A stretch of DNA of 13,683 nucleotides. Source: an uncultured Oscillospiraceae bacterium (GTDB taxonomy: Bacteria > Bacillota_A > Clostridia > Oscillospirales > Oscillospiraceae). Positions within the stretch are counted from its first letter, which is position 1; every line of letters begins with the position of its first letter. The notes under the pieces were generated by a model. The model made no database searches. It was not told the DNA's origin and saw only the letters and a list, made by a program, of their open reading frames with translations. Positions 2,056 through 13,683 of the stretch are shown one piece after another. Both the position numbers and the translations under genes were made by a program. The stretch spans positions 1-13,683 of the forward strand of contig CALXDE010000134.1 in assembly GCA_944386965.1 (NCBI GenBank). The letters run 5' to 3'.

Positions 2056-2102
2056 GCGAAAGCCGGGAATGGCTACAGATGTATGCCATTCCCGGCTTTC
2101 GC
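2056..2102. terminator. 18-bp perfect hairpin closing the kinase/RuBisCO-like operon
   Basis: Arms 2056-2073 and 2085-2102 are perfect reverse complements (18 bp) with an 11-nt loop. The hairpin starts 14 bp after the stop codon of the HAD phosphatase gene. No run of T follows on either strand, so a classic intrinsic terminator is not shown. A transcript-stabilising 3' structure or a factor-dependent stop is equally possible. Confidence 0.5.
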
Positions 2103-2116
2103 GCGTCTTATCTCAC

Positions 2117-2755
2117 TTAAAAAGCAGGGCTGTTCCGGACAGCTTCTATCACATCGAAAAACGTATCATACAGCAGGAACTGCCGTCCCATCTTTTGAAG
2201 ATAGGCAGCCAGCACATCCCTGGCAAAGATGGTGTCTACCGCCAGGCTCATCTTCATATCGGTAAAGCTGTCGCCGATGCCGATGGCATGCCGGTAGTCA
2301 TAGAGCGCCATCACGTCGGTCTTTTTCAGGAGCTCGTTGCCGTCGTCATAGGGGGAGACCAGCTTCATCCCCGGCCCGCTGGTGTCCAGGTCCACGGCGT
2401 GGACCCCCAGGAGCCGGCCGCGCCAGGGGGCCAGCCGCAGCTCCACGAACTGCCGCACGCCGCCGGAGATGACCACCACCGGGATCTCGCGCTTGTCCAT
2501 CTCATCTAAAAATTCCGGAAATCCCGGCCGCAGCGCCACGCCCTTCACATAGTCCAGCATCCGCTCCAGGCGGCTGGACGGCGCGCCGTCAAAGGCGTAG
2601 CGTACCACCTGGCTGAGGGTCATCTCCCCGCGCACCAGCTTCCCCTTGACACTGTGGAACTCCTCGGGGGAGGCAAACAGGCGGATGGCCCCCTCCAGGG
2701 TGTCCTCCATGGTGATGGTGCCGTCAAAGTCCACAAAGGCAATGGTATCGTACAT
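2117..2755 (-). CDS. HAD-superfamily phosphatase, MtnX-like
   Basis: A 212-residue HAD phosphatase with all four motifs: DFDGT with nucleophile Asp9 and acid/base Asp11 near the N terminus, SGG at 97-99, Lys144/145, and GDSFTD at 161-166 for Mg2+. The FARDVL stretch (177-182) after motif IV and the overall size match MtnX, which dephosphorylates the enol-phosphate product of the RuBisCO-like enolase MtnW in methionine salvage. It is the last gene of the operon, 21 bp after the RuBisCO-like gene, with GGAGG eight bases before the ATG. The adjacency mirrors mtnW-mtnX, but mtnK, mtnA, mtnB and mtnD are absent, so the real substrate may differ. Phosphoserine phosphatase-like activity is a weaker alternative. 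Confidence 0.85.
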   Translation of the reverse strand: MYDTIAFVDFDGTITMEDTLEGAIRLFASPEEFHSVKGKLVRGEMTLSQVVRYAFDGAPSSRLERMLDYVKGVALRPGFPEFLDEMDKREIPVVVISGGVRQFVELRLAPWRGRLLGVHAVDLDTSGPGMKLVSPYDDGNELLKKTDVMALYDYRHAIGIGDSFTDMKMSLAVDTIFARDVLAAYLQKMGRQFLLYDTFFDVIEAVRNSPAF

Positions 2756-2776
2756 CCGTCCCGCCTCCTCTGCCGA

Positions 2777-4093
2777 TCAGTTCATCAGATCGAAGTTCTT
2801 CTTCAGATCCGGGTTCAGGTAGGCCAGCATCCGGCCCAGCTCCGCGTGGTCTTTGGCGTACTCCACCACGGGGATGCCCTGCATGGCTGCGTCAATGGCC
2901 TGGCGCATGCTCTTGGCCCCGGCCTCGCTGCCGTCGGGATGGCCGTGGACGCCGCCGCCGGCGGCCAGCATCACATCGGTCCCCACAGCCTTGATGATCT
3001 TCTCCACCGCCAGCTGCGTGGTGCCGCCGGAGCAGGCGTACATCATGGGTTTGATGTTCCACCAGGGCTGGGTGAAGAACTTGAAGCAGCGGTAGAACAC
3101 CTTATAGGACACGGGGAACTTGCCGAAGGGGTGGCCGTTGATCTGGAAATCGCCGCCGGCCAGCCGGGTGATCTTGCCGATGAGCAGAGGGGCGGAGATG
3201 CCGGTATAGGTGGAGGCGGCCATGGTGCCGGCGAAGTTCACGTGGGCCAGGATGGGCACATTGATGTTGGGGTCCTCCGCGAGCATTTTCAGGGTATCAA
3301 AGCCGGTGGTGTAGACATTCACCATCAGGCAGTTGTTGCCGTACTCCAGGGCACGATAGGCGTTGTCCCGGACCTTCTCGGTGCTGTCGGAGATATTCAC
3401 GGCATAGAGGCTGTGCTCCCCGGTCTCCTCATAGACCCGCTTCTCGGCGGCCATGAACTTGGTGACCCGCTCCTTCAGCGGGCAGAAGGGCCCGTCGGCC
3501 AGCATCAGCTCGTCGTCCTTGATGACGTCCACGCCGCCCTTGCAGGCGTGGTAGAAGAGGTCGGCCCCCTCGTCCGGCGTCCAGCCGATGTTGGGCTTGA
3601 TCATGGCGTTGAGCAGGGGACGGTCGGGCACGCCCAGCACCTTCCGCAGGCCCTCCACGCCGAATTTGGGCCCCTGGAACTGGGCGATCATCTTCTTGGG
3701 GAAGGCCACGTCGATGAGGCGGATCATGCCGGAGGCGGAGATATTGCCGAACAGGATCGTCATCAGGGAGGACATGCTGTGAGAGAAGTTCTCCATGGGG
3801 TAGGCCACCTGGATGATGTACATGGGCGGCTCGTCGGACTGGTAGTCACAGCCGATGTCCGGCACCTCGTAGAGCGCCACCAGCTTGGAGCCGAAGCGGC
3901 GGGTCTTTTCCATGGAATCCGCCCCCACCTTGATCCAGGTACCGGTGGTCTGCTCGTCGGCAATGGCCATGGCCAGCTTCTCGATGTTGCTGGTCTTTAC
4001 CTTGGCCTGGTAAGTGGCGATGACATAGTCGTTGTCAAAGGCCACCTCCGGAAAGGCATAGGTCAGATTTTCTTCGTCCAGTTTACGGATCAT
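2777..4093 (-). CDS. RuBisCO-like protein (form IV type), probable enolase or decarboxylase on a phosphorylated substrate
   Basis: A 438-residue protein with the RuBisCO large-subunit architecture: N-terminal domain about 20-145, then the TIM barrel about 150-430. By-eye alignment keeps the carbamylation/Mg site GGVDVIKDDE (Lys192, Asp194, Glu195 for RuBisCO Lys201, Asp203, Glu204). It also keeps Glu47, Thr52 and Trp53 (Glu60, Thr65, Trp66), Asn117 (Asn123), Lys166 (Lys175), His284 (His294), Lys325 in the loop-6 position (Lys334), SGG 355-357 (Ser379) and GG 379-380 (403-404). It differs at Asn168 (Lys177), Val285 (Arg295) and Ile318 (His327). Loss of these three argues against ribulose-bisphosphate carboxylation and for the RuBisCO-like class, whose members act as enolases, isomerases, decarboxylases or transcarboxylases. 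The RBS AAGGAGA begins at the stop codon of the aminotransferase gene 14 bp upstream, so the genes are probably coupled. The exact reaction is unknown. Confidence 0.9.
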   Translation of the reverse strand: MIRKLDEENLTYAFPEVAFDNDYVIATYQAKVKTSNIEKLAMAIADEQTTGTWIKVGADSMEKTRRFGSKLVALYEVPDIGCDYQSDEPPMYIIQVAYPMENFSHSMSSLMTILFGNISASGMIRLIDVAFPKKMIAQFQGPKFGVEGLRKVLGVPDRPLLNAMIKPNIGWTPDEGADLFYHACKGGVDVIKDDELMLADGPFCPLKERVTKFMAAEKRVYEETGEHSLYAVNISDSTEKVRDNAYRALEYGNNCLMVNVYTTGFDTLKMLAEDPNINVPILAHVNFAGTMAASTYTGISAPLLIGKITRLAGGDFQINGHPFGKFPVSYKVFYRCFKFFTQPWWNIKPMMYACSGGTTQLAVEKIIKAVGTDVMLAAGGGVHGHPDGSEAGAKSMRQAIDAAMQGIPVVEYAKDHAELGRMLAYLNPDLKKNFDLMN

Positions 4094-4107
4094 GGGATAC
4101 TCTCCTT

Positions 4108-5556
4108 TCAGCGCTCCACGTTGGAAAAGACTTCTTCAAAGGCGGCCAGGGTCTGCTGTATGGTTTCGTCGTTGTCCGCCATGCTGGTGTAGATGCGGCT
4201 GCCGGCCAGGGTGATGACGCCGTTGGCGGTGAGGGCCGCGCCGAACTCCTCGATATACTTCTGGCGCTCCGGGATCTTGGTGAAGATGTCCGGGTCGGAC
4301 ACGTCCAGGTACATGACGCCGGAAACCTCGAAGTGGACAATGGAGCCGGTGTTCCAGGTGACGAAGGGCAGATCGTACTGGTCGATGAGCTTCTGGATGC
4401 CCGCGCAGAGCTTGTCGCCGTTCTCTCCGGCCTTCACCGCCGCGTCCTGGCGGACGATCTCGTCAATGGCGAAGTACCCCGCCGCGCAGCTCAGGGGGTT
4501 GGCGGTGAGGGTGCCGCCCACATAGGCCTTCTTCTTCCCGGCCTTGACGCCGGCCGCCACGCAGGACATGATGTCCGCCCGGCCGCCCACGCCGCCGGCC
4601 ATGGGATAGCCGCCGGCCACGATCTTGCCGAACACGGTGAGGTCGGGTCTGACATCGAAGAAGCCCTGGGCACCGCCGGGGCCCACCCGGAAGGCGGTGA
4701 CCACCTCGTCGAAGATCAGCAGGGTGTCAAACTCGTCGCACAGCGCCCGGACCTTGGCGGCGAAGTCCAGGGCCACCGGGCGGGTGCCGCTCTCGGGGCC
4801 GAAGGGCTCAATGACCACCGTGGCGGTGCCGCCGTGCTTCTCATTCTCCTCCAGCACCCGCCGCAGCCCCTCCACGTCGCCGGGGAAGAACTCGCTGGTG
4901 CTGGCGCTGACATTCTTGGGGATGCCGTGGGCCTCATAGGTCTTGGTGTAGGGGATGTGGAGGGAGTAGACCAGCTGGTCGCTCCAGCCGTGGTAGGCCC
5001 CGCCCACCTTCACGATGCGCTCCTTGCCCGTGAAGGTCCGGGCGATGCGGATGGCCACCATGTCCGCCTCCGTGCCGCTGGCCAGACACCGGTACAGCTC
5101 CACCCAGGGCATGCACTCCTGGATCTTCTCCGCCAGCTTCATCTCATAGGGGTGGAACAGCCCCGTCACCGGACCGGACTCCCGCACCACCTCCCAGACC
5201 TTCTCATTCACCGGGGCGTAGTTGCTGCCCAGGAGGGTGGGGCCGCCGGCCTGGAGATAGTCCACGTAGCGGTTTCCGTCGATATCGTAGAGGTAGGCCC
5301 CCTCGGCCTTGGTGATCACCAGGGGGAAGGGGTAGTTGAAGGCCAGGTTGTGCTGCACGCCGCCGGGGATGACCTTCTTGGCCTCCACGATCATGGAGCG
5401 GGACCCCTGGCATTTCTCATGGAAGTAGGAGAGATATTTCTCCATGGCCGCGGGTTTGATGTGGTGGAGGGGCTCCTTCACCAGCCGGTCCATCTTCTCA
5501 TAGATGGCCTTGTCGTCCGGCCAGTGGGAGATTCCATAGTGTTCTTTCATCAACAT
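4108..5556 (-). CDS. Class III PLP aminotransferase, glutamate-1-semialdehyde aminomutase-like
   Basis: A fold-type I PLP enzyme moving an amino group on or off an aldehyde or keto substrate. In the 482-residue product one sees SGTEA (160-164, phosphate grip), AYHGW (187-191), IFDEVVTAFR with PLP Asp283, and the Schiff-base Lys311 in VFGKIVAGGYP. The TVFGK-IVAGGYPMA-GG wording is that of the HemL/GSA-aminomutase subgroup. It is some 50 residues longer than HemL at the N terminus, and no other haem genes are near, so it is unlikely to be HemL itself. The start is ATG at 5556, eight bases after AAGGAGG; an in-frame TTG at 5580 lies upstream of that site and is rejected. It sits 45 bp after the kinase gene and 14 bp before the RuBisCO-like gene, so it should act on an intermediate of the same pathway. 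Confidence 0.9.
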   Translation of the reverse strand: MLMKEHYGISHWPDDKAIYEKMDRLVKEPLHHIKPAAMEKYLSYFHEKCQGSRSMIVEAKKVIPGGVQHNLAFNYPFPLVITKAEGAYLYDIDGNRYVDYLQAGGPTLLGSNYAPVNEKVWEVVRESGPVTGLFHPYEMKLAEKIQECMPWVELYRCLASGTEADMVAIRIARTFTGKERIVKVGGAYHGWSDQLVYSLHIPYTKTYEAHGIPKNVSASTSEFFPGDVEGLRRVLEENEKHGGTATVVIEPFGPESGTRPVALDFAAKVRALCDEFDTLLIFDEVVTAFRVGPGGAQGFFDVRPDLTVFGKIVAGGYPMAGGVGGRADIMSCVAAGVKAGKKKAYVGGTLTANPLSCAAGYFAIDEIVRQDAAVKAGENGDKLCAGIQKLIDQYDLPFVTWNTGSIVHFEVSGVMYLDVSDPDIFTKIPERQKYIEEFGAALTANGVITLAGSRIYTSMADNDETIQQTLAAFEEVFSNVER

Positions 5557-5601
5557 GTGATCTGCCTCCTTATGCTGCAAAATGCGTGATCCGCCTGCCC
5601 G

Positions 5602-7140
5602 TCATCCGTTGAGGGCGGCAAACGACTTCTTGTTGTCCTTGTACAAATTCTGGAACACCGGCAGGATCTTGTCATACACCGCCGTGTTCTCCGGCCGGGG
5701 GCGGTAGACGGCGCTGACCTGGATAATCCGCTTGATGTCCTTGATGTCTTTGAGCATCCCAAAGCTCACCGCCAGCAGGGCCGCGGCCCCCATGGCCCCC
5801 ACCTGCCGGGTGTTCTCGATCGTCTCCACCTCCCGGCCCAGCACATCCGCCATCACCTGGCAGATATAGGGGGAGATGGCGCTGCCGCCGGCAAAGCGCA
5901 CCACGGGCTTGGTCCGGAAAGCCCCCTCCGTGCATTCCAGCAGCCAGCGCATGTGGAGGCACACCCCCTCGATCACCGCCTTCATCAGGTCGCTGCCATG
6001 GGTGGTGATGTCCAGGTTGAAGAACACGCCCCGGGAGTTGGCATCGTCAAAGGGACAGCGGTTGCCGTGCATCCAGGGGGAGAAGACCACGCCGTTGGCC
6101 CCGGCGGGGGTGTCCTTGATGTAGTCGATCATCTCGTCATAGTCCATCCCCATCTGGTCCACCCGGTCTTTCACCCACTCCATGCACTTGCCGCTGGTCT
6201 CCACCTCGGCGATGTAGTTATAGGTGGTGGGGTCCGCCCCTACCAGGGCGCCAATCAGGTTCCCCAGGTCCAGGTGGAGCTTATCCACTGTGGTGGCCAC
6301 CCAGCCGGAGGTGCCGGAGTACACCAGCACGTCCCCCACCTCCACGCAGCCCGCGCCCACAGAGCACAGGCTCACGTCGCTGCCGCCGGAGAACACCGGC
6401 GTCCCCGCCGCCAGGCCCAGCTCTTCCGCGCCGCGGGGCAGCAGCTTTCCCACCTGATCCGTGGAGTCGCACAGCTCCGGCAGGTGGTCCATGTTGATCT
6501 CCAGCATCCGGCAGAGGGTCTTGCTCCAGCAGCCCTTCTTCACATCGTAGAGGAAGGTGCCGTTGGCGTCGTCCCGGCTGGCCTTCATCACGCCGGTGGC
6601 CCGGCAGATGAGGTACTCCTTGGCATCCAGCCACTTGTATGTCTTCTGAAAGATCTCCGGCTCGTTGTCCCGGACCCAGAGATATTTCCAGGCCGGGTCC
6701 TTGGCGCTGCCGGACACGGCGCCGGTGATTTTCAGGTATTTCAGCACCTTGATGAGATCCAGGCCCTCCACCTTGATGCCCGTGCTCATGCAGCGCTTGA
6801 ACTGGGCGTCGGCCCGGGCGTCCATGCAGCTCATGGCCCGGCGCAGGGGCCGTCCCGCCTTGTCCACCAGCACCACCGTCTGAAACTGGGAGCAGAAGGT
6901 GATCCCCTGGATCTCCTCCTTTGCGGTACCCGTTTTCTCCAGCAGCCGCCGGGTGCTTCGGGCCATGGCCTCCCACCAGTCGTCCGCCTCCTGCTCCACG
7001 CCGCCGTTCTCCAGCACATGGAGATCGTAGTGCTCCACCTCGCCTGCCAGGTACTGCACGCTCTCCTCTGCGGAGATGCGAAACAGGCAGGTCTTCAGTC
7101 CCGTTGTGCCAACATCGTAGGCAATCACGTTCACCGCCAT
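5602..7140 (-). CDS. FGGY-family carbohydrate kinase
   Basis: A 512-residue ATP-dependent kinase with the two actin-like FGGY domains. Landmarks are the N-terminal phosphate loop DVGTTGLK (9-16), the substrate-side Gln85 region, the catalytic base Asp255 in SGGSD, the second phosphate loop YSGTSGW (274-280), the typical NSRGVFFNLD segment (368-377) and AGGSAISP adenosine binding (417-424). The family phosphorylates xylulose, ribulose, glycerol, tetritols, fuculose and autoinducer-2. The substrate cannot be read from the sequence, although overall it looks closer to the xylulokinase-like branch. It is the first gene of the operon and has GGGGAG eight bases before the ATG and a near-consensus promoter at 7201-7229. 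As the only kinase here it presumably makes the phosphorylated intermediate used by the RuBisCO-like protein and the HAD phosphatase. Confidence 0.9.
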   Translation of the reverse strand: MAVNVIAYDVGTTGLKTCLFRISAEESVQYLAGEVEHYDLHVLENGGVEQEADDWWEAMARSTRRLLEKTGTAKEEIQGITFCSQFQTVVLVDKAGRPLRRAMSCMDARADAQFKRCMSTGIKVEGLDLIKVLKYLKITGAVSGSAKDPAWKYLWVRDNEPEIFQKTYKWLDAKEYLICRATGVMKASRDDANGTFLYDVKKGCWSKTLCRMLEINMDHLPELCDSTDQVGKLLPRGAEELGLAAGTPVFSGGSDVSLCSVGAGCVEVGDVLVYSGTSGWVATTVDKLHLDLGNLIGALVGADPTTYNYIAEVETSGKCMEWVKDRVDQMGMDYDEMIDYIKDTPAGANGVVFSPWMHGNRCPFDDANSRGVFFNLDITTHGSDLMKAVIEGVCLHMRWLLECTEGAFRTKPVVRFAGGSAISPYICQVMADVLGREVETIENTRQVGAMGAAALLAVSFGMLKDIKDIKRIIQVSAVYRPRPENTAVYDKILPVFQNLYKDNKKSFAALNG

Positions 7141-7200: not shown

Positions 7201-7229
7201 ATTGTACTCTATTCTAAAATTATAGTCAA
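7201..7229 (-). promoter_or_regulatory. Strong promoter of the kinase / aminotransferase / RuBisCO-like / phosphatase operon
   Basis: Minus-strand TTGACT (7229-7224) and TACAAT (7206-7201), each 5 of 6 to consensus, lie 17 bp apart in an AT-rich spacer about 60 bp before the kinase ATG. An 11-bp palindrome ACAAATTTTGT (7231-7241) abuts the -35 box on its upstream side and could be an operator, though at this AT content it may be chance. Confidence 0.75.
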
Positions 7230-7363: not shown

Positions 7364-7417
7364 AGGGATAAAAAATCCCTCCGCGCGGCAGGCGCGGCGG
7401 GAGGAATGGGGAAGAAC

Positions 7418-7978
7418 ATGACAGAAGTTGAGTTAAAGGCCGCCCTGACCGGCCCGCAGGCCGCGGAGCTTCCGGGCCGTCTGGCGAGACTGGGCTTCAC
7501 CCCTGGGGACACCCTCCGGGAAACCGACCTCTATTGGAACGGGACTGCCCGGGACTTTTGGAAAACCGACGAGGCGCTCCGCCTGCGGCGGGAGGCCGGC
7601 GCGGGGTCGGAAACGGTTCTGCTCACCTATAAAGGCCCCAAGGAGGACCGGCGCTCCAATACCCGGCTGGAATATGAGACAGCCGTGGGCGATCTGGATA
7701 CCGCCCGCGCCATCCTGCAGGCTCTGGGGTTTGAAGCGGTGTGCACCGTCTCCAAGACGCGGCAGACCTTTCGTCTGGGCGAGGTGACCGCCTGTCTGGA
7801 TCAGGTGGACGGATTGGGACCGTTTCTGGAGCTGGAGCATCTGCTGCCGGACGGCGCAGAGCGGGAGACGGCGGTAAGCGGCCTGCTGGACCTGCTGGAC
7901 CGTCTGGGCGTATCCCGCCAGGCGCTGGAGCGGAGGTCCTATCTGGAACTGCTGCTGGGCCGGACGCGGGGGCGGTGA
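7418..7978 (+). CDS. CYTH-domain protein (class IV adenylate cyclase / triphosphatase-like)
   Basis: A 186-residue CYTH protein of the CyaB/thiamine-triphosphatase tunnel fold, acting on triphosphorylated substrates with divalent metal. It shows the signature ExExK at the very N terminus (Glu3, Glu5, Lys7) and the alternating basic and acidic strands that line the tunnel: ALRLRRE (53-59), LLTYKGP (68-74), TRLEYET (82-88), SKTRQTF (112-118) and FLELE (136-140). The length fits the CyaB branch. Starts at 7406 and 7418 are in frame; 7418 is preferred because the motif then sits at residues 3-7 and GGGGAAG lies just before it. The activity (cyclase, thiamine triphosphatase or inorganic triphosphatase) cannot be told. 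The TetR gene follows after two bases. Confidence 0.88.
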   Translation: MTEVELKAALTGPQAAELPGRLARLGFTPGDTLRETDLYWNGTARDFWKTDEALRLRREAGAGSETVLLTYKGPKEDRRSNTRLEYETAVGDLDTARAILQALGFEAVCTVSKTRQTFRLGEVTACLDQVDGLGPFLELEHLLPDGAERETAVSGLLDLLDRLGVSRQALERRSYLELLLGRTRGR

Positions 7979-7980
7979 AT

Positions 7981-8604
7981 ATGGAGAAGCTCAGCCGCAG
8001 AGAACTGAATAAGATCCAATGCCGCCAGCGGATTTTGAAGGCCTCCCGCCAGCTGTTCAGCACCAAAGGCTATGAGGAAACCACCATGGAGGATGTGGCG
8101 GACCGGGCCGAAGTGTCCAAGGCCACCCTCTACAACTATTTCCCGGGCAAGGACAGTCTGCTCCTGGGGATTGCTGAGGCGGAGCTGGAACAGATCTGCC
8201 AGCTGATCGAGGGGGAGCTGAGCCAGGTGCCCAGCGCCCTGGACCGCCTGCGCCAAGTGCTGGAGGCCTTTGTCCTGGACTCCATGTGCTACATCTCCCT
8301 GAGCCGGAAGATCACCTATCTCAACTCCTGCGAGGACAGCGATCTTTTTGCCACCCGCCTGGAGATGGTGCAGATTCTCCGGGGCCTGGTCCTCCAGGCT
8401 CAGCAGCAGGGGGAGCTGCGCCGGGATGTGGACACAGACGCGGTCACTGAGCTGGTGATGGGCCTCTATCTCACCGCGCAGTTTCAGTGGGTCCACCTGG
8501 AGGAGCACCCTGCCGATTTCTGGGCGGAGAAGCTGGAGCGGTCCTTTTATCAGGTGCTGGCCTGCGCCCTGCCCGGCGCCCGGCGGGAGGGCCCGCCTTC
8601 CTGA
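7981..8604 (+). CDS. TetR/AcrR-family transcriptional regulator
   Basis: A 207-residue regulator with the TetR N-terminal helix-turn-helix: RILKASRQLFSTKGYEETTM (17-36), then VADRAEVSKATLYNYF (39-54), the family's classic wording. The remaining 150 or so residues are the helical ligand/dimer domain, which is not diagnostic. The ATG lies two bases after the CYTH stop and has only a weak RBS (GGTGA, overlapping that stop), so translation is probably coupled. It may regulate its own unit and possibly the divergent kinase operon, but no operator is proven. A strong terminator follows immediately. Confidence 0.93.
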   Translation: MEKLSRRELNKIQCRQRILKASRQLFSTKGYEETTMEDVADRAEVSKATLYNYFPGKDSLLLGIAEAELEQICQLIEGELSQVPSALDRLRQVLEAFVLDSMCYISLSRKITYLNSCEDSDLFATRLEMVQILRGLVLQAQQQGELRRDVDTDAVTELVMGLYLTAQFQWVHLEEHPADFWAEKLERSFYQVLACALPGARREGPPS

Positions 8605-8609
8605 CGAAC

Positions 8610-8652
8610 AAAAAACCGAGGGGATTGTTAAGACAATCCCCTCGGCTTTTTT
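8610..8652. terminator. Bidirectional intrinsic terminator between TetR gene and tail cluster
   Basis: A perfect 13-bp stem (8616-8628 with 8633-8645) and four-base loop TAAG, flanked by six A on the left and, after one C, six T on the right. It therefore works in both directions: it ends the CYTH-TetR transcript on the plus strand and the convergent tail-gene transcript on the minus strand. Confidence 0.92.
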
Positions 8653-8711: not shown

Positions 8712-9278
8712 CTATACGGCCAGTTGAAACGTATACCAGGTATACTCTGCGGCGTGGATCATGGCCCAGGTGTACCCGGCGGCCTCGCACTCGGCCCAGG
8801 TGAGATAGCGGAAGTAGAATTCCGTCTCCAGGTGGCAGGGGATGATGTCCAGAATAATGTCCTTAATCTGGTCGAATTCCTCGGGAATGCCCGCCACATT
8901 GGGAAAGATGATCCGGATGTGTCCCTCCCCCATCTCCTGGGCCTCGGCCTTGATGCCGCAGCCGCTGATGGCGCTGTTGATATCCTGAAGGGTAAAGCTG
9001 TCGGCGCTGATGCGCAGCAGCGCCGCGATGGCCGCCCGCCGCAGCTCCGTACCGGAGTTCACCGGCCGCCGGGCGAAGAGACTCTCCCGCAGGGCGAGCC
9101 CCTCGTCCTCCGCCGTAGCCAGAATACTCTCCCGCTCCACCCGCGCCAGGTCCTCCGCGGCGCCGTCCAGCCCCGCGCCCATGGCGTCCAGCTCGCTGCC
9201 GCTGAGGCTTTCCGCGCGCAGGTCATAGATCCCCAGAGGGGCCAGGAGCGCCCGCAGATAGTTGCCGTATGCCGCCAT
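8712..9278 (-). CDS. Tail/baseplate protein, DUF2313 / XkdU-like (gpI/YmfQ family)
   Basis: A 188-residue protein last in the tail operon. Its position directly after the baseplate J gene and its C-terminal aromatic segment (YFRYLTWAECEAAGYTW at 154-170, ending FQLAV) match the PBSX XkdU / DUF2313 family, which sits at the baseplate rim where fibres attach (role as known for P2 gpI). The start overlaps the upstream stop by one base (TGATG). No tail-fibre gene follows: after 59 bp comes the terminator. Confidence 0.75.
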   Translation of the reverse strand: MAAYGNYLRALLAPLGIYDLRAESLSGSELDAMGAGLDGAAEDLARVERESILATAEDEGLALRESLFARRPVNSGTELRRAAIAALLRISADSFTLQDINSAISGCGIKAEAQEMGEGHIRIIFPNVAGIPEEFDQIKDIILDIIPCHLETEFYFRYLTWAECEAAGYTWAMIHAAEYTWYTFQLAV

Positions 9279-10342
9279 CAGGTTTCCTCCTCCATATCGC
9301 TGATGGTAAGATCCCCCAGCCGGGGCAGGGCCGTGACGACCGCCGCCACATCCGCCGTCGGGGAGGTGAAGTGGTAGTTTGCCACGCTGTCCAGGCTGTA
9401 GAGCAGGTGGCCCAGTTCCGCCAGCGTCACGCCTCTCCCCAGCAGATCCCCGGTAAAATGGGCGCGCAGGGCGGCGTCGGCGGCGTCCTCCGCCTGGTCA
9501 TAGGTGTATCCCTCCGCCGCCTGAATCGCCACGCTCACATCCACCGTCTGCTCCTGGGGGGCGCAGACCTCCACATCCACGGCGATCTCCCGCTTCTGCT
9601 GGAGATCCGCCTCAATCTCCGCCAGCAGCTCCGCGCCCGGAAGCCCTGCCTCCGTGGCCACATATACATCCACCGTTCCAATGCCCCGGGCCCGGCCCAC
9701 GGCCTTGGCCGCCGCCACGCCGGGATAGTTCATGGCCTCTAATTCATAGAAGGCGGCATTGGCCCCGTTGGGCAGGCGCTTGAAGCTGTCCAGAATCCGT
9801 TCGCGCAGGGCCTCGTCGCTCTCCCGGTCCGCGCCGCCGGCAAAGGCCACCGGATTGGTACACTTTTTCACACCCGCCGGCGCCACCGCCATGCGCGTCA
9901 CGGTGTCCGCCGCCACATTGCCCCCGCTCCCGGTTTCCAGGGCTTCCGCCAGCACGTCCACATAGAGCTCTCCCGCCTCCAGCACCGCCGCCTGTGTAGT
10001 CTGAAAGCGGCGGCCCTCCCCGGTCATACACACTGTGCCCGCCGGAATGGCCAGGTCCTGGGCCACGGCGGTATCCACCTGAAAGCGGAGGTATCCCTCC
10101 GCCGCCGTGGCCACGCTGCGCTCGATCCCCCGGGTCTGGGCGTGATAGTCCAGATAGACGCCCTGGGCTGTCTGGGGAAAGGCCTGCCCCATGACCCACT
10201 CCGCCTGGAGATACAGCGCCTGGACCTGGGCGGCCGCGGCGTAGAGCCGGGCGGCCAGATCGCAGGACGCGCTGGGCAGATACCCGGACTGGGCGGAGAA
10301 GATCTCCAGCATCTCCTGGTAAATCGTATCGATGGTCTTCAA
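9278..10342 (-). CDS. Baseplate J-like protein (gp47/XkdT family)
   Basis: A 354-residue baseplate wedge protein of the gpJ / T4 gp6 type, which forms the ring around the hub in contractile tails. Supporting features are the length, the N-terminal IYQEMLEIFSAQSGY (6-20), the YLDYHAQTRGIERSVATAAEG stretch around residues 63-83 typical of the family (start of the linker after the N-terminal domain), and the middle GADRESDEALRERILD (189-204). The start is a TTG (10342-10340), ten bases after GGAGG; the next in-frame ATG is ten codons on and has no RBS. It overlaps the DUF2313 gene by one base. Confidence 0.88.
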   Translation of the reverse strand: MKTIDTIYQEMLEIFSAQSGYLPSASCDLAARLYAAAAQVQALYLQAEWVMGQAFPQTAQGVYLDYHAQTRGIERSVATAAEGYLRFQVDTAVAQDLAIPAGTVCMTGEGRRFQTTQAAVLEAGELYVDVLAEALETGSGGNVAADTVTRMAVAPAGVKKCTNPVAFAGGADRESDEALRERILDSFKRLPNGANAAFYELEAMNYPGVAAAKAVGRARGIGTVDVYVATEAGLPGAELLAEIEADLQQKREIAVDVEVCAPQEQTVDVSVAIQAAEGYTYDQAEDAADAALRAHFTGDLLGRGVTLAELGHLLYSLDSVANYHFTSPTADVAAVVTALPRLGDLTISDMEEET

Positions 10343-10380
10343 TCTCTCTTATCCTCCTTCTCCCCGGCCTGCCGCCCGCC

Positions 10381-10725
10381 TCACAGCGTCACCGTGGCGG
10401 TGAGCGCGGCGTTTTCTCCCCGGAGCCACACTGTCAGGTCCATTCGGCCGTTTCCCCGCTCCGTCAGGCGCAGGTCCTCCACCGTCAGTCCCTCCGGGGA
10501 TACCGCCTGGGCGGCATACTGCCGGGCGGCGGAGAGCCGGGCCTCCGGCGCCTCCCGCCCCAGCTGATAGAACTGACTGCCCAGCTCCGGCAGCATGGGC
10601 AGTCCCCCTCTGCGGGCGCTCAGGCGGAACAACACTCTCTGCAGGAGCGCCTCGTCTCCCTCCGCCCGCACCACGCCGCCCCGCCCATCGGGGATATAGT
10701 CTCCGTTTTCCAGTCGTAATTCCAT
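10381..10725 (-). CDS. gp25 / GPW-like baseplate protein (XkdS-like)
   Basis: A 114-residue protein with the gp25-like wedge pattern: an N-terminal region with GDEALLQRVLFRLSARRGG and a PELGSQFYQL block (46-55), typical of the W/gp25 family, which links sheath initiation to the baseplate. Start chosen at ATG 10725 because AGGAGAG lies five bases before it; a GTG five codons upstream overlaps the RBS itself and is rejected. It lies between the spike and baseplate J genes, as in PBSX, P2 and extracellular injection systems. Confidence 0.8.
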   Translation of the reverse strand: MELRLENGDYIPDGRGGVVRAEGDEALLQRVLFRLSARRGGLPMLPELGSQFYQLGREAPEARLSAARQYAAQAVSPEGLTVEDLRLTERGNGRMDLTVWLRGENAALTATVTL

Positions 10726-10736
10726 TCGTGCTCTCC

Positions 10737-11141
10737 TCACTCCGCCGGCACCAGCGTCTCACACGTACAGGGCTTGTAGAGGGTGCCGTTGACATACAGG
10801 GTGCCGGTGAGGTCGATGCGCCCGCCGCTGTGGAGGCGGACGGACGCCTCTCCGGCCCGGATATACACATCTCCCGGCTCCAGGTCCTCCGGAGCCTCCG
10901 CCTGTTCGGCGGCGGCCACGCACTGTTCCGCGCCGGCCACGCCGCCCTTGATGACCAGCACCCGCTCACCGGCCTTGGGCTGCCAGAAATAGCCTCCCGG
11001 GCCGTACACCGGCACATTCCGGTCCTCGCCCCGGGTTTCCACCGCCGCGCTCTCCCCGCCGATGGTGGTGATCCCCAGGTCCACGGCGGTGCTGTCCTCC
11101 CGGGCCCGGGTGCCGCCGGCGATCTTTTCTCCGATCCACAT
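10737..11141 (-). CDS. Baseplate assembly protein V-like spike protein
   Basis: A 134-residue protein resembling the gpV / XkdR-like OB-fold spike. The VPVYGPGGYFWQPKAGERVL stretch (43-62) is the OB-strand pattern of that family, and the C-terminal part (90-123) reads as short beta strands (VYIRAGEASVRLHSGG, then IDLTGTLYVNGTLY). It has a Cys-x-Cys (125, 127) near the C terminus, possibly a metal site at the tip. It is shorter than P2 gpV. Its RBS GGAGGAG lies inside the end of the hub gene, two bases upstream. Confidence 0.75.
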   Translation of the reverse strand: MWIGEKIAGGTRAREDSTAVDLGITTIGGESAAVETRGEDRNVPVYGPGGYFWQPKAGERVLVIKGGVAGAEQCVAAAEQAEAPEDLEPGDVYIRAGEASVRLHSGGRIDLTGTLYVNGTLYKPCTCETLVPAE

Positions 11142-11143
11142 GC

Positions 11144-12082
11144 TTATCGCTCCTCCATAGTCAGGATGGTGGTTTCTCCCCCGGCGCCGCCGCTGGTGAC
11201 GGCCTCCACCACGTCATAGGTCCCATACAGGTCCAGCGGCTCGTAGGACAGCTCCACAATGTCCCCCGGCGCGGCGGAAAAGGGCCCGGAGAGGGTGAGT
11301 TCCGTCTGGCGCGTCCCCTTCCGGGACTGCTGGATCTGGTAATCGCCGGTATAGCGCACCGCGTCGTAGGAGCTGCTGCCCGGCATGTAGAGCACCTGCC
11401 GCCGCGCGCCGCCCCGGCGAAGAAACTCCGTGTTGTCCACCGTCTGCATCACCCGCTGGTTCCGGTCCCGGATGAGGACCTGGCTGATGACGCCGTAGCG
11501 CTTCTCCCGGCGCAGACAGGAGAGGACCGGCGCCGTACCGTCGATGATCCGGCGCTCTCCGCTCCCCGCCATGGGCTCCACCACCAGCTCCCCCTCCGGC
11601 GTGAACCAGGGTATGAACCCTCCGGCCCGGCTGGTAAAATCCGCCAGGGCCTTCCACTGGCTGGAGCCGCTGGTCACCCGGTAATTCATGGCGTCCATGT
11701 CCCGCCAGCGGGAGCAGGCCACGCCCCACGCCGTCACGTGGGTCCGCACGATCTCCGCCGTAGTGGCCTGCTGATAGGTGGCGGCCTCCGCCTCGTTGTC
11801 CAGCAGCAATGCCGCCATGCCCCGGCCGGCCACCCGGAGCAGCAGGCCCTCCTCCGATGCCTCCACCTCGTACTCATCCACCACGCCCCGGAGGATCAGC
11901 GTGTCGTCCTGATAGGCGGCGAAGCGGTTCACGTCCGGCAGGATCTCCTGGAGCTCCCCGTCGTATACCGCCTCGGCCTCCAGCTCATCCGCCGGGACGC
12001 TGCCGGTGCGCCGCACCGTCCAGGTGAGAAGGGTGGGCATGCGATACTGCCGCCCGTCATAGGTCAAAAGCCGCACCGTCAT
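11144..12082 (-). CDS. Baseplate hub protein, gpD / XkdQ-like (late control D family)
   Basis: A 312-residue hub protein of the T4 gp27 / P2 gpD / PBSX XkdQ type, forming the ring that holds the spike at the end of the tail tube. Evidence is its place between the LysM protein and the spike, its length, the early LTWTVRRTGSVPADELEA segment, the central ALADFTSRAGGFIPWFTPEG (typical hub wording), and the GDIVELSYEPLDLYGTYDVV beta-rich end. The ATG at 12082 overlaps the upstream stop by one base (TGATG); a longer frame opens at 12193 but lies inside the upstream gene. Confidence 0.85.
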   Translation of the reverse strand: MTVRLLTYDGRQYRMPTLLTWTVRRTGSVPADELEAEAVYDGELQEILPDVNRFAAYQDDTLILRGVVDEYEVEASEEGLLLRVAGRGMAALLLDNEAEAATYQQATTAEIVRTHVTAWGVACSRWRDMDAMNYRVTSGSSQWKALADFTSRAGGFIPWFTPEGELVVEPMAGSGERRIIDGTAPVLSCLRREKRYGVISQVLIRDRNQRVMQTVDNTEFLRRGGARRQVLYMPGSSSYDAVRYTGDYQIQQSRKGTRQTELTLSGPFSAAPGDIVELSYEPLDLYGTYDVVEAVTSGGAGGETTILTMEER

Positions 12083-12654
12083 CACGGCAGCGCCACCTCC
12101 TGTCCCACCACGATGAGGTTGGGATTCTTGATGGCCGGGTTCACCGCCAGGAGCTCCTCCAGCGTGGTGCCGTACCGCCGGGCGATGCGCCACAGGGTGT
12201 CCCCCTGGACCACGGTGTGGGTCTGCCGGGGCGTGGAGACGGCGGAGGTCACCGTGGCGGTGCCGCCGCTGTCCGGAAACTGTTCCAGGGCCTGGCTGTA
12301 GCCGTCAAAGCTCTCCCGGAATTCGAAGCTGTAAGCCACATAGTCCGGCAGAGGCTCCTGCCGCACCGACAGGGCGGTGAAGTAGGCGTTGGAGATCTGC
12401 CAGACCGGATGGACCAACAGGCCCGGCCCGCCGCCGTAAAACACGGTGGCCAGTTTTTTGAATTCGTCGTAGGCCCCCTCCCCGGCAAACTCCCCCTCCC
12501 CCCGGAGAATCCGGCAGGACTGTCCCAGGTCCTGCATGCAGTAGCGGCCAAAGGGCACCTTGTGCTCGGCCAGCTGCCGCTGGAAGGAGATGGTGTAGGT
12601 GTGGGGATTGTGGGGCCAGATATAGTCCTTGTAGCGCATGGGCTGCAATTCCAT
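12082..12654 (-). CDS. LysM-domain baseplate/tail protein (XkdP / Afp7-like)
   Basis: A 190-residue protein. Residues 1-125 form a tail-associated domain with no named motif that I recognise. A Thr/Ser-rich linker (about 128-144) leads to one LysM domain (145-189: HTVVQGDTLWRIARRYGTT, NPAI, VVGQEV). In PBSX (XkdP) and in Afp/PVC injection systems (Afp7) such proteins lie next to the hub and join tube end and baseplate; LysM here is probably structural rather than for the host wall. RBS AGGTGAG precedes the ATG, 11 bp after the upstream stop. Confidence 0.85.
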   Translation of the reverse strand: MELQPMRYKDYIWPHNPHTYTISFQRQLAEHKVPFGRYCMQDLGQSCRILRGEGEFAGEGAYDEFKKLATVFYGGGPGLLVHPVWQISNAYFTALSVRQEPLPDYVAYSFEFRESFDGYSQALEQFPDSGGTATVTSAVSTPRQTHTVVQGDTLWRIARRYGTTLEELLAVNPAIKNPNLIVVGQEVALP

Positions 12655-12665
12655 TGTCTCACCTC

Positions 12666-13322
12666 TCAGTACAGGGGAAATCCGCTGTCATACCGGCGGC
12701 TGTCCCGCTCAAAGCGCCGGGACAAAGCCGCCGCGCCCTCCGGGACCCCTCCCGGCCGGGCCGCCTCCCGCCGGGTATCCGTCGGCCAGGCGGAGTGTCC
12801 GGCAGCTCCGGCGGTTTCCAGCGGCCCTGCCTCGGCTGCCCGGCGGTCCGGAACCGGCAGCGCCGGCTCCGCCGCCTCCGGCGCCGCTCGGGAAGGCAGC
12901 TCCGGCGTCAAAGCCGCGGCTGTCTCTTGCCCAGGCAGCTCCACCGGCTGGGTCACAGGCCTTCCCCGCTCCGGCAGGTCCGCCCGGACCGGCTCCCGCT
13001 CCGCAGGCGTCTCCAGCTCCGGCGCAAGCCCCTTCGCCGCTCTGGCCGGAAGGTCCGGCGCCTCCGCCGACGTCCTTCCCCGCCGCGGAAGGGCAGTGTC
13101 CGCGTCCAGAGCGGAGAGGGCACGGAACCGCTCCGGATCAAACGACTCGTCCGCGGCTGTCTCCGGGCTCTGGTCCGGCCTCTGGACAAGGGGCTGCGCG
13201 GAGGCGGGGACGCTCTCCCGCGTCCCCGCCGCTCCGCCGGCAATTGCCGCCGCCAGCTGCCCCAGGAGGCTGGCCGGCAGGCGAAGCGTAACCTCGATCT
13301 GCTGTTCCTGACGCTCCTCCAT
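12666..13322 (-). CDS. Disordered Pro/Ala/Glu/Arg-rich protein of the tail cluster, function unknown
   Basis: A 218-residue protein I do not recognise. After a short ordered N terminus (QQIEVTLRLPASLLGQLAAA at 7-26, a possible strand and helix) it is low-complexity, rich in Pro, Ala, Arg and Glu with loose recurring LP-(A/S/E)-R blocks. It closes with a conserved-looking tail LSRRFERDSRRYDSGFPLY (200-218). It overlaps the tube-like gene stop by one base and precedes the LysM gene by 11 bp, so it is part of the tail operon. In PBSX this slot holds the tail-assembly chaperone (XkdN) and the large tape-measure protein (XkdO); this protein looks like neither. Confidence 0.7.
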   Translation of the reverse strand: MEERQEQQIEVTLRLPASLLGQLAAAIAGGAAGTRESVPASAQPLVQRPDQSPETAADESFDPERFRALSALDADTALPRRGRTSAEAPDLPARAAKGLAPELETPAEREPVRADLPERGRPVTQPVELPGQETAAALTPELPSRAAPEAAEPALPVPDRRAAEAGPLETAGAAGHSAWPTDTRREAARPGGVPEGAAALSRRFERDSRRYDSGFPLY

Positions 13323-13683
13323 CAGGCGCTCACTTCCATCCGCTTACGGGCGATGACGGATACCTTTTCCGCCACCATGGCGCCCAGCTTTCCCTCCTCG
13401 GCGATGGCGTTCCAGTTGCAGCCGCTGTAGATGACCTTCCGGTCCGGCTTGCAGATGACCAGGGAGAAGTCGGAGATGGAGTAGAAATCAATGCCGTCGC
13501 TGATGGCCGCGTCCGTGGCGTAGAGCCGGGTCAGCTCCAGCAGATACTGGTTCTGTCCGGCAATGGTGGCCACCGGCTCCTTCTCGCCGAAGGCCTCCAC
13601 CACCTGGCTGGTCTTGGTGGCCTTGGCGGTGTAGCTCTGGACCACCGCCACCTTTTTCCCCTCCAGCTCCAGCCAGATGTCGC
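13322..13683 (-). CDS. Phage tail tube-like protein, C-terminal part (cut by right window edge)
   Basis: The frame is open to the window end, giving about 119 residues. The GTG at 13651 is internal, since in-frame sequence upstream reads DIWLELEGKK before it. The pattern (WLELEGKKVAVVQSY, then ISDGIDFYSISDFSLVICKP near the middle, and a C-terminal basic end) fits a small beta-sandwich tail-tube-type protein and the position fits a tube gene, but I cannot assign a named family with certainty. It may instead be a tube-initiator or baseplate-associated relative. Its stop overlaps the next start by one base. Confidence 0.55.
   Translation of the reverse strand, partial: DIWLELEGKKVAVVQSYTAKATKTSQVVEAFGEKEPVATIAGQNQYLLELTRLYATDAAISDGIDFYSISDFSLVICKPDRKVIYSGCNWNAIAEEGKLGAMVAEKVSVIARKRMEVSA

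What the first reader, a model, noticed from the sequence alone, without database searches (positions are those of the whole stretch)
2117..7140. Four-gene operon built around a RuBisCO-like protein, with no matching known pathway
An FGGY kinase, a GSA-aminomutase-like aminotransferase, a RuBisCO-like protein and an MtnX-like phosphatase share one strong promoter with 14-45 bp spacing and end at a hairpin. Known RuBisCO-like pathways (methionine salvage with MtnK/A/W/X/B/D; apiose and oxo-isoapionate routes with a decarboxylase or transcarboxylase) do not, to my knowledge, combine these four enzymes. The gene set implies: phosphorylate, transaminate, enolise or decarboxylate, dephosphorylate. 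This is the best candidate for an undescribed pathway in the window.
Basis: partly seen in the sequence, partly recalled or inferred. Interest (0 to 1): 0.75.

Follow-up and report, generated by a model that had tools for sequence, protein, structure and literature searches.

The report
RuBisCO-like sugar-phosphate operon, substrate unknown
A set of genes shared by many gut and sediment bacteria groups a relative of the CO2-fixing enzyme RuBisCO with a sugar kinase, an aminotransferase and a phosphatase, and probably breaks down or salvages a nitrogen-containing sugar-like compound that is not yet identified.

Summary
The operon is real. On the minus strand, an FGGY kinase, a class III aminotransferase (AMT), a RuBisCO-like protein (RLP) and an MtnX-like HAD phosphatase sit 45, 14 and 21 bp apart, behind a conserved promoter and before an 18-bp hairpin. 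It is not unique to one genome: among RLP loci of >=61% identity with enough flank, AMT adjoins RLP in 22 of 24, the phosphatase in 22 of 24, and a kinase lies near in 21 of 24. A TetR regulator and a CYTH protein usually travel with it. The RLP keeps 15 of 20 RuBisCO active-site positions and loses the (recalled) second-phosphate ligands; it lacks the MtnW base, so it is neither RuBisCO, MtnW nor OiaX by the tests made. AMT paralogues sit in a second, RLP-free cluster (kinase, AMT, class II aldolase), and both kinase clades serve both cluster types. Best reading: an undescribed salvage or catabolic route for an amino-polyol or amino-sugar-like compound through a mono-phosphorylated ketone, processed by RLP plus phosphatase or by an aldolase. 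Substrate and RLP reaction remain unproven. The paper searches listed nothing on this set.

The parts
7201..7229 (-). Promoter TTGACT-17 nt-TACAAT of the operon; weak imperfect palindrome in the spacer (possible TetR operator)
   Evidence: Consensus scan 10 of 12; region conserved in the window plus L001, L002, L020, L023, L026; palindrome 7 of 10 pairs in the window, 5, 6 and 6 in L001, L023, L026, permutation p 0.02: weak
5602..7140 (-). FGGY carbohydrate kinase, 512 aa
   Evidence: PF00370 143.8 bits, PF02782 72.7 bits; best NCBIfam XylB 284 bits, below its 380 cut-off
4108..5556 (-). Class III PLP aminotransferase (AMT), about 482 aa; resembles GSAM and D-phenylglycine aminotransferase
2777..4093 (-). 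RuBisCO-like protein (RLP), 438 aa
2117..2755 (-). MtnX-like HAD-IB phosphatase, 212 aa
   Evidence: PF12710 40.5 bits; TIGR01488 53 bits over its cut-off 45; MtnX equivalog models below cut-off
2056..2102 (-). Perfect 18-bp hairpin, 11-nt loop, 3' of the operon, no U-run
7406..7978 (+). CYTH-domain protein, divergent (start 7406 or 7418); part of the conserved neighbourhood
   Evidence: PF01928 108 bits; found at 16 of 27 close RLP loci, 17 of 28 with L092, in several positions
7981..8604 (+). TetR-family regulator, divergent; part of the conserved neighbourhood
   Evidence: PF00440 66 bits; found at 21 of 27 close RLP loci, 22 of 28 with L092

Best explanation
A salvage or catabolic operon, probably TetR-controlled, for a nitrogen-containing, sugar-like compound (an amino-polyol or amino-sugar). 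Inferred steps: the FGGY kinase phosphorylates a terminal hydroxyl; the aminotransferase turns the neighbouring amine into a ketone, giving a ketone next to CH2-O-phosphate (a ketose-1-phosphate type intermediate); the RLP binds this single phosphate in the RuBisCO P1 site, is activated by carbamylation of K192 and Mg, and moves protons through an enediolate (isomerisation or enolisation); the MtnX-like phosphatase removes the phosphate and pulls the reaction forward. In sister clusters a class II aldolase takes the RLP's place. Shown: gene order, conservation, kinase exchange between cluster types, and kept or lost residues. Inferred: every reaction and the substrate.
For: Linkage across Oscillospiraceae, Anaerovoracaceae, Christensenellaceae and a spirochaete MAG: AMT beside RLP 22 of 24, phosphatase 22 of 24, kinase near 21 of 24. 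Role-for-role replacement: in L066 the phosphatase is another HAD type and an amidohydrolase joins; in L027 AMT is absent and a saccharopine-dehydrogenase-like gene follows RLP. RLP keeps the recalled catalytic and P1 residues and loses R295, H298, H327 of the P2 site in all 22 full-length close rows. AMT paralogues lie beside a class II aldolase in 5 of 6 contigs fetched for them (L100, L101, L102, L104, and a 74-aa fragment in L105; not L103). The two close RLP loci without AMT (L018, L092) lie in genomes that carry this aldolase cluster (L102, L101). Kinase clades A and B each hold kinases of both cluster types. RLPs of 37-46% identity sit near PTS IIBC and EI, sugar-binding (SorC-type) regulators, FGGY kinases or a GlpA-like oxidoreductase: sugar-phosphate settings. 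MFS_1 or MFS_2 permeases join some clusters. Precedent: in R. palustris an RLP and the aldolase Ald2 share 5-methylthioribulose-1-phosphate (PMC5893883, passages; that Ald2 is class II is recalled).
Against: No biochemical or expression data; the amine-next-to-phosphate step rests on chemistry alone. The kinase resembles xylulokinase, which phosphorylates C5, not C1 (recalled). AMTs of the aldolase clusters form their own clade, so the two cluster types may act on different substrates. Four genomes (G001, G985, G1053, G1055) hold both kinds of module, and L015/L016 hold both in one stretch, so RLP and aldolase may act in sequence or separately rather than as alternatives. Kinase clade B has 94/93 support, just under the tool's mark. 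The role of CYTH is unexplained. L013 lacks kinase and phosphatase near RLP.
Confidence: 0.4

Rival explanations
1. Beta-amino acid route with a decarboxylating RLP: the kinase phosphorylates a hydroxylated beta-amino acid, AMT makes the beta-keto acid, RLP decarboxylates it as OiaX does, the phosphatase finishes. The class II aldolase of sister clusters would be a decarboxylase like the 3-oxo-tetronate-4-phosphate enzyme.
Against: OiaX of L039 differs at E60, W66 and N123 and keeps R295; the window RLP scores 210 bits against a 700 cut-off for OiaX. The same aldolase matches ribulose-phosphate 4-epimerase and ribulose-1-phosphate aldolase models better (134.9 and 111.8 bits, both below cut-off). 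A catabolic decarboxylase would give a usable sugar phosphate, so a dedicated phosphatase seems needless (inference).
Confidence: 0.2
2. Biosynthesis: the operon makes an amino-polyol or azasugar-like product, AMT installs the amine, the phosphatase releases the product and the MFS protein exports it.
For: The logic resembles azasugar clusters with an aminotransferase and a phosphatase (recalled). TetR-controlled MFS genes are often exporters (recalled); MFS sits between kinase and AMT in L006, L007, L009, L014, L019.
Against: Kinase plus class II aldolase in sister clusters is a catabolic pattern (recalled); an aldehyde dehydrogenase is fused to the aldolase in L100; sugar-binding regulators sit beside L067 and L072.
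Confidence: 0.15
3. A methionine-salvage variant for 5-methylthioribose or 5-deoxyribose, with RLP as MtnW and HAD as MtnX.
For: RLP and HAD are nearest to MtnW and MtnX in sequence; mtnA is present in 10 of 14 genomes.
Against: MtnW base K98 (recalled) is N117 here; equivalog cut-offs missed; mtnA lies on another contig in nine genomes and about 725 kb away in G001, and was not found in G007, the draft genome nearest to the window; the acireductone dioxygenase family has no match in 13 of 14 genomes, and in G004 only partial hits, the best 29.6 bits against a cut-off of 27; no MtnK- or MtnB-type protein among the eight window proteins scanned.
Confidence: 0.07

Closest known systems
Methionine salvage MtnW/MtnX (Bacillus, Geobacillus)
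   Same: RLP plus HAD phosphatase acting in series on a mono-phosphorylated ketone; nearest solved sequences and folds
   Different: Lacks MtnW base K98 and has K at the 334 position; FGGY kinase and class III aminotransferase instead of MtnK/A/B; acireductone dioxygenase not found in 13 of 14 genomes
MTA-isoprenoid and DHAP shunts (R. rubrum, R. palustris)
   Same: RLP or an aldolase as alternative users of one ketose-1-phosphate (PMC5893883, passages)
   Different: No aminotransferase or phosphatase named in the passages seen; entry by MtnP/MtnA there; mtnA not linked here
Apiose pathway RLPs (OiaX and relatives)
   Same: RLP in a carbohydrate operon with a kinase
   Different: L039, L040, L042, L044 sit beside four-carbon acid sugar kinases; all six plasmid RLPs carry F66 and R295; no class III aminotransferase or MtnX is annotated beside them
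5-deoxyribose salvage clusters
   Same: Same logic as the RLP-free sister cluster: phosphorylation, isomerisation, aldol cleavage (PMC6079011, start of abstract in a search listing)
   Different: Aminotransferase in place of the isomerase; FGGY kinase

Membership tests
RuBisCO superfamily (RLP) | PF00016 and PF02788 over curated cut-offs | tested here: met
   179.4 vs 30.1 and 45.3 vs 20.7 bits
Bona fide RuBisCO | All recalled catalytic residues, including both phosphate sites | tested here: not met
   15 of 20 kept; K177N, R295V, H298A, H327I, L335F; below form III and large-subunit cut-offs
MtnW (DK-MTP-1-P enolase) | Equivalog cut-off and base K98 (recalled) | tested here: not met
   338 vs 409 and 295 vs 513.6 bits; N117 at the K98 position
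OiaX | Equivalog cut-off; four-carbon acid sugar kinase neighbour | tested here: not met
   210 vs 700 bits; the operon's kinase is FGGY; four of six plasmid RLPs looked at have the four-carbon acid sugar kinase
Methionine salvage pathway | Linked mtnA and acireductone dioxygenase | tested here: not met
   mtnA in 10 of 14 genomes but unlinked; dioxygenase family: no match in 13 of 14, partial hits in one; genomes are partly drafts
Glutamate-1-semialdehyde aminomutase | Equivalog cut-off; R32 and E406 (recalled) | tested here: not met
   274.6 vs 527.3 bits; A80 and S461 at these positions (my reading)
MtnX phosphatase | Equivalog cut-off | tested here: not met
   91.7 vs 292 and 84.3 vs 303.2 bits; HAD-IB subfamily TIGR01488 met, 53.1 vs 45
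FGGY kinases | PF00370 and PF02782 over cut-offs | tested here: met
   143.8 vs 28.8 and 72.7 vs 27 bits
Xylulokinase | Equivalog cut-off | tested here: not met
   284.3 vs 380.25 bits
DeepYkr RLP (methylthioribulose-1-P 1,3-isomerase) | 1,3-isomerase activity; clade membership | not tested
   No R. rubrum sequence was obtained; activity needs the bench

The most novel reading that the evidence does not exclude
The RLP, with RuBisCO's E60, N123, K175, K201, H294 and K334 all kept and the second phosphate site lost, is a carboxylase or decarboxylase of mono-phosphorylated ketones, coupled to an aminotransferase that interconverts the resulting beta-keto and beta-amino acids: a RuBisCO-family C1 step in anaerobic fermenters whose genomes (7 of 7 searched) hold no other RuBisCO-family gene.
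Probability: 0.1. Interest if true: 0.9.

Novelty: new variant of a known kind. Interest (0 to 1): 0.6.

Why it matters
Few RLP functions are known. This defines a well-conserved RLP subfamily, common in gut metagenome data, with a distinct active site and an unreported partner set including an aminotransferase. Loci in named cultured strains (Emergencia timonensis, Anaerovorax, Sinanaerobacter, Mobilibacterium) make it testable. The sharing of kinases between RLP clusters and class II aldolase clusters points to a ketose-1-phosphate type intermediate.

Tried and rejected
Whole-genome context of the window itself: none is held; G007 (locus L001: RLP 100% identical, other genes lower) served as proxy. 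Riboswitch or other RNA: no Rfam match at gathering scores in the window. Methionine salvage, OiaX, RuBisCO and GSAM membership: tested and not met. TetR operator: only a weak palindrome. Distant RLPs: no AMT was found beside the RLP in L025, L027, L068-L076, so the AMT link does not hold for clostridial RLPs in general. A count of AMT contexts over many genomes could not be run: the requests did not complete. The Carter 2018 apiose paper is not held. Structure comparison adds only fold: AMT ties between D-phenylglycine aminotransferase and GSAM, RLP is nearest MtnW.

Dropped rows: loci that repeat contigs already held (L045, L046, L077, L078, L080-L083, L093, L098, L099, L106) were not counted again. 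L021/L023 and L024/L026 are pairs of contigs of one MAG each and were counted as loci. Loci with too little flank were left out of each count: AMT (L016, L021, L024, L028), phosphatase (L018, L023, L026, L029), kinase (L021, L022, L024, L028). One search used a cruder gene finder that missed genes in GC-rich loci; counts come.
Full report
Observation. The four genes lie where described, on the minus strand, with gaps of 45, 14 and 21 bp and a purine-rich ribosome-binding site before each start. A 10-of-12 promoter precedes the kinase; its region is conserved in six aligned sequences (window and five relatives), with TTGAT in two of them. A perfect 18-bp hairpin follows the phosphatase stop; it has no U-run, so 'terminator' is likely but not shown. 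Divergently, a CYTH-domain gene (7406-7978) and a TetR gene (7981-8604) follow.

Conservation. One scan of genome contigs gave 38 loci, 27 with RLP at 61% identity or more. I counted partners by tblastn within 8.5 kb. With the extra locus L092 from another genome: AMT 22 of 24 loci with enough flank (missing in L018, L092; partial in L013), phosphatase 22 of 24 (missing in L013; L010 has only a fragment match about 4 kb away at a contig end), kinase 21 of 24 (missing in L013, L018, L092; L029 is partial and divergent). TetR was found at 22 of 28 and CYTH at 17 of 28, several of the 28 being truncated. CYTH lies divergently beside TetR (window, L001, L002, L020, L023, L026), convergently after the phosphatase (L003-L008, L012, L017, L022), or on the operon strand (L015, L016 between phosphatase and kinase; L092 after the phosphatase); this argues for a functional link. 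The distribution is patchy: a match at E <= 1e-20 in 18 of 391, 3 of 394 and 12 of 297 genomes drawn around known carriers; of these 33, only 9 (2, 2 and 5) belong to the close subfamily. Seven of seven carrier genomes hold no other RuBisCO-family gene. The best 120 RLP relatives listed are all 79% or more identical, the best 120 AMT relatives all 69% or more; both lists are capped.

A sister cluster. AMT paralogues of 49-54% identity occur in five of the 20 genomes searched (G001, G985, G1053, G1055, G891). I fetched their six contigs: five have a class II aldolase beside AMT (L100, L101, L102, L104; only a 74-aa piece in L105), four of these also an FGGY kinase; L103 has neither. In L100 the aldolase is fused to an aldehyde dehydrogenase. 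L015 combines AMT, RLP, phosphatase, CYTH, kinase, class II aldolase and MFS in one stretch, and L016 all of these but AMT, its contig starting within RLP. The two close RLP loci without AMT belong to genomes carrying the aldolase cluster (G1055, G985). In the kinase tree, clade A joins window-type kinases with those of aldolase clusters L101 and L104 and of L015/L016 (100/99), and clade B joins L006-L009 and L014 with L027 and aldolase clusters L100 and L102 (94/93) (L008 is included in L006-L009). AMTs by contrast split by cluster type (100/97 for the aldolase type). I infer one upstream module feeding two downstream modules. Cautions: the AMT split, and four genomes that hold both modules, which leaves sequential or separate action open.

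Variants. L066: kinase, RLP 46%, AMT 63%, a different HAD, a nitroreductase, an amidohydrolase and TetR on one strand. L067: RLP 49%, AMT 52%, MFS_2 permease, sugar-binding (SorC-type) regulator. L027: kinase, RLP, saccharopine-dehydrogenase-like gene, no AMT nearby. Other distant RLPs adjoin PTS IIBC and EI (L094), a sugar-binding regulator (L072, L075), a GlpA-like oxidoreductase with an FGGY-like kinase further on (L072, L096), or a zinc alcohol dehydrogenase and a HAD (L068). An RLP tree (FastTree) places AMT-linked RLPs in three separate branches.

Mechanism. Shown: linkage, kinase exchange, residue pattern. Inferred: kinase makes a phosphate ester; AMT makes the ketone beside it; RLP forms the enediolate; the phosphatase finishes. 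Rivals are decarboxylation of a beta-keto acid phosphate, a biosynthetic direction, and methionine salvage; the last is disfavoured by residues, cut-offs, unlinked mtnA (10 of 14 genomes) and the missing acireductone dioxygenase (no match in 13 of 14, partial hits in one).

Literature. Searches on RLP with aminotransferase, FGGY, gene cluster, DeepYkr, apiose, class II aldolase, gut and sugar phosphate and on Emergencia timonensis listed no paper on this gene set. Searches showed only the top of longer lists, and only open-licence papers are searchable. I saw passages of PMC5893883 and PMC6302742, the start of the abstract of PMC6079011 in a listing, and could not read the apiose paper.

Verdict. 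A real, conserved operon type that the searches did not find described; new variant of a known kind (RLP pathways); substrate open.

Noticed in passing
8712-13681: A phage-tail gene run on the minus strand (tail protein, baseplate wedge, baseplate hub, LysM protein; PHROGs matches in 7 of 8 proteins) borders the TetR gene, so a prophage or tailocin-like element sits next to the operon in this strain.
   Followed up: partly
811-1977: A cysteine desulfurase family gene (TIGR01977 438.9 vs 377 bits) follows the operon on the same strand; among the loci it is found beside the operon only in L001, so it is probably not part of it.
   Followed up: partly
8616-8645: A 13-bp stem with a T-run lies between the TetR gene and the phage genes, a likely terminator.
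   Followed up: no
L094 7512-8855: An RLP of about 42% identity directly beside a PTS IIB-IIC protein, with EI nearby: an RLP apparently fed by a PTS-made sugar phosphate.
   Followed up: partly
L100 11674-13632: A class II aldolase fused to an aldehyde dehydrogenase in the Emergencia timonensis genome, beside a kinase and an AMT paralogue.
   Followed up: no
L043 2351-7239: In Natronococcus an RLP sits with an FGGY kinase, a class II fructose-bisphosphate-type aldolase and a dehydrogenase rather than a four-carbon acid sugar kinase.
   Followed up: no
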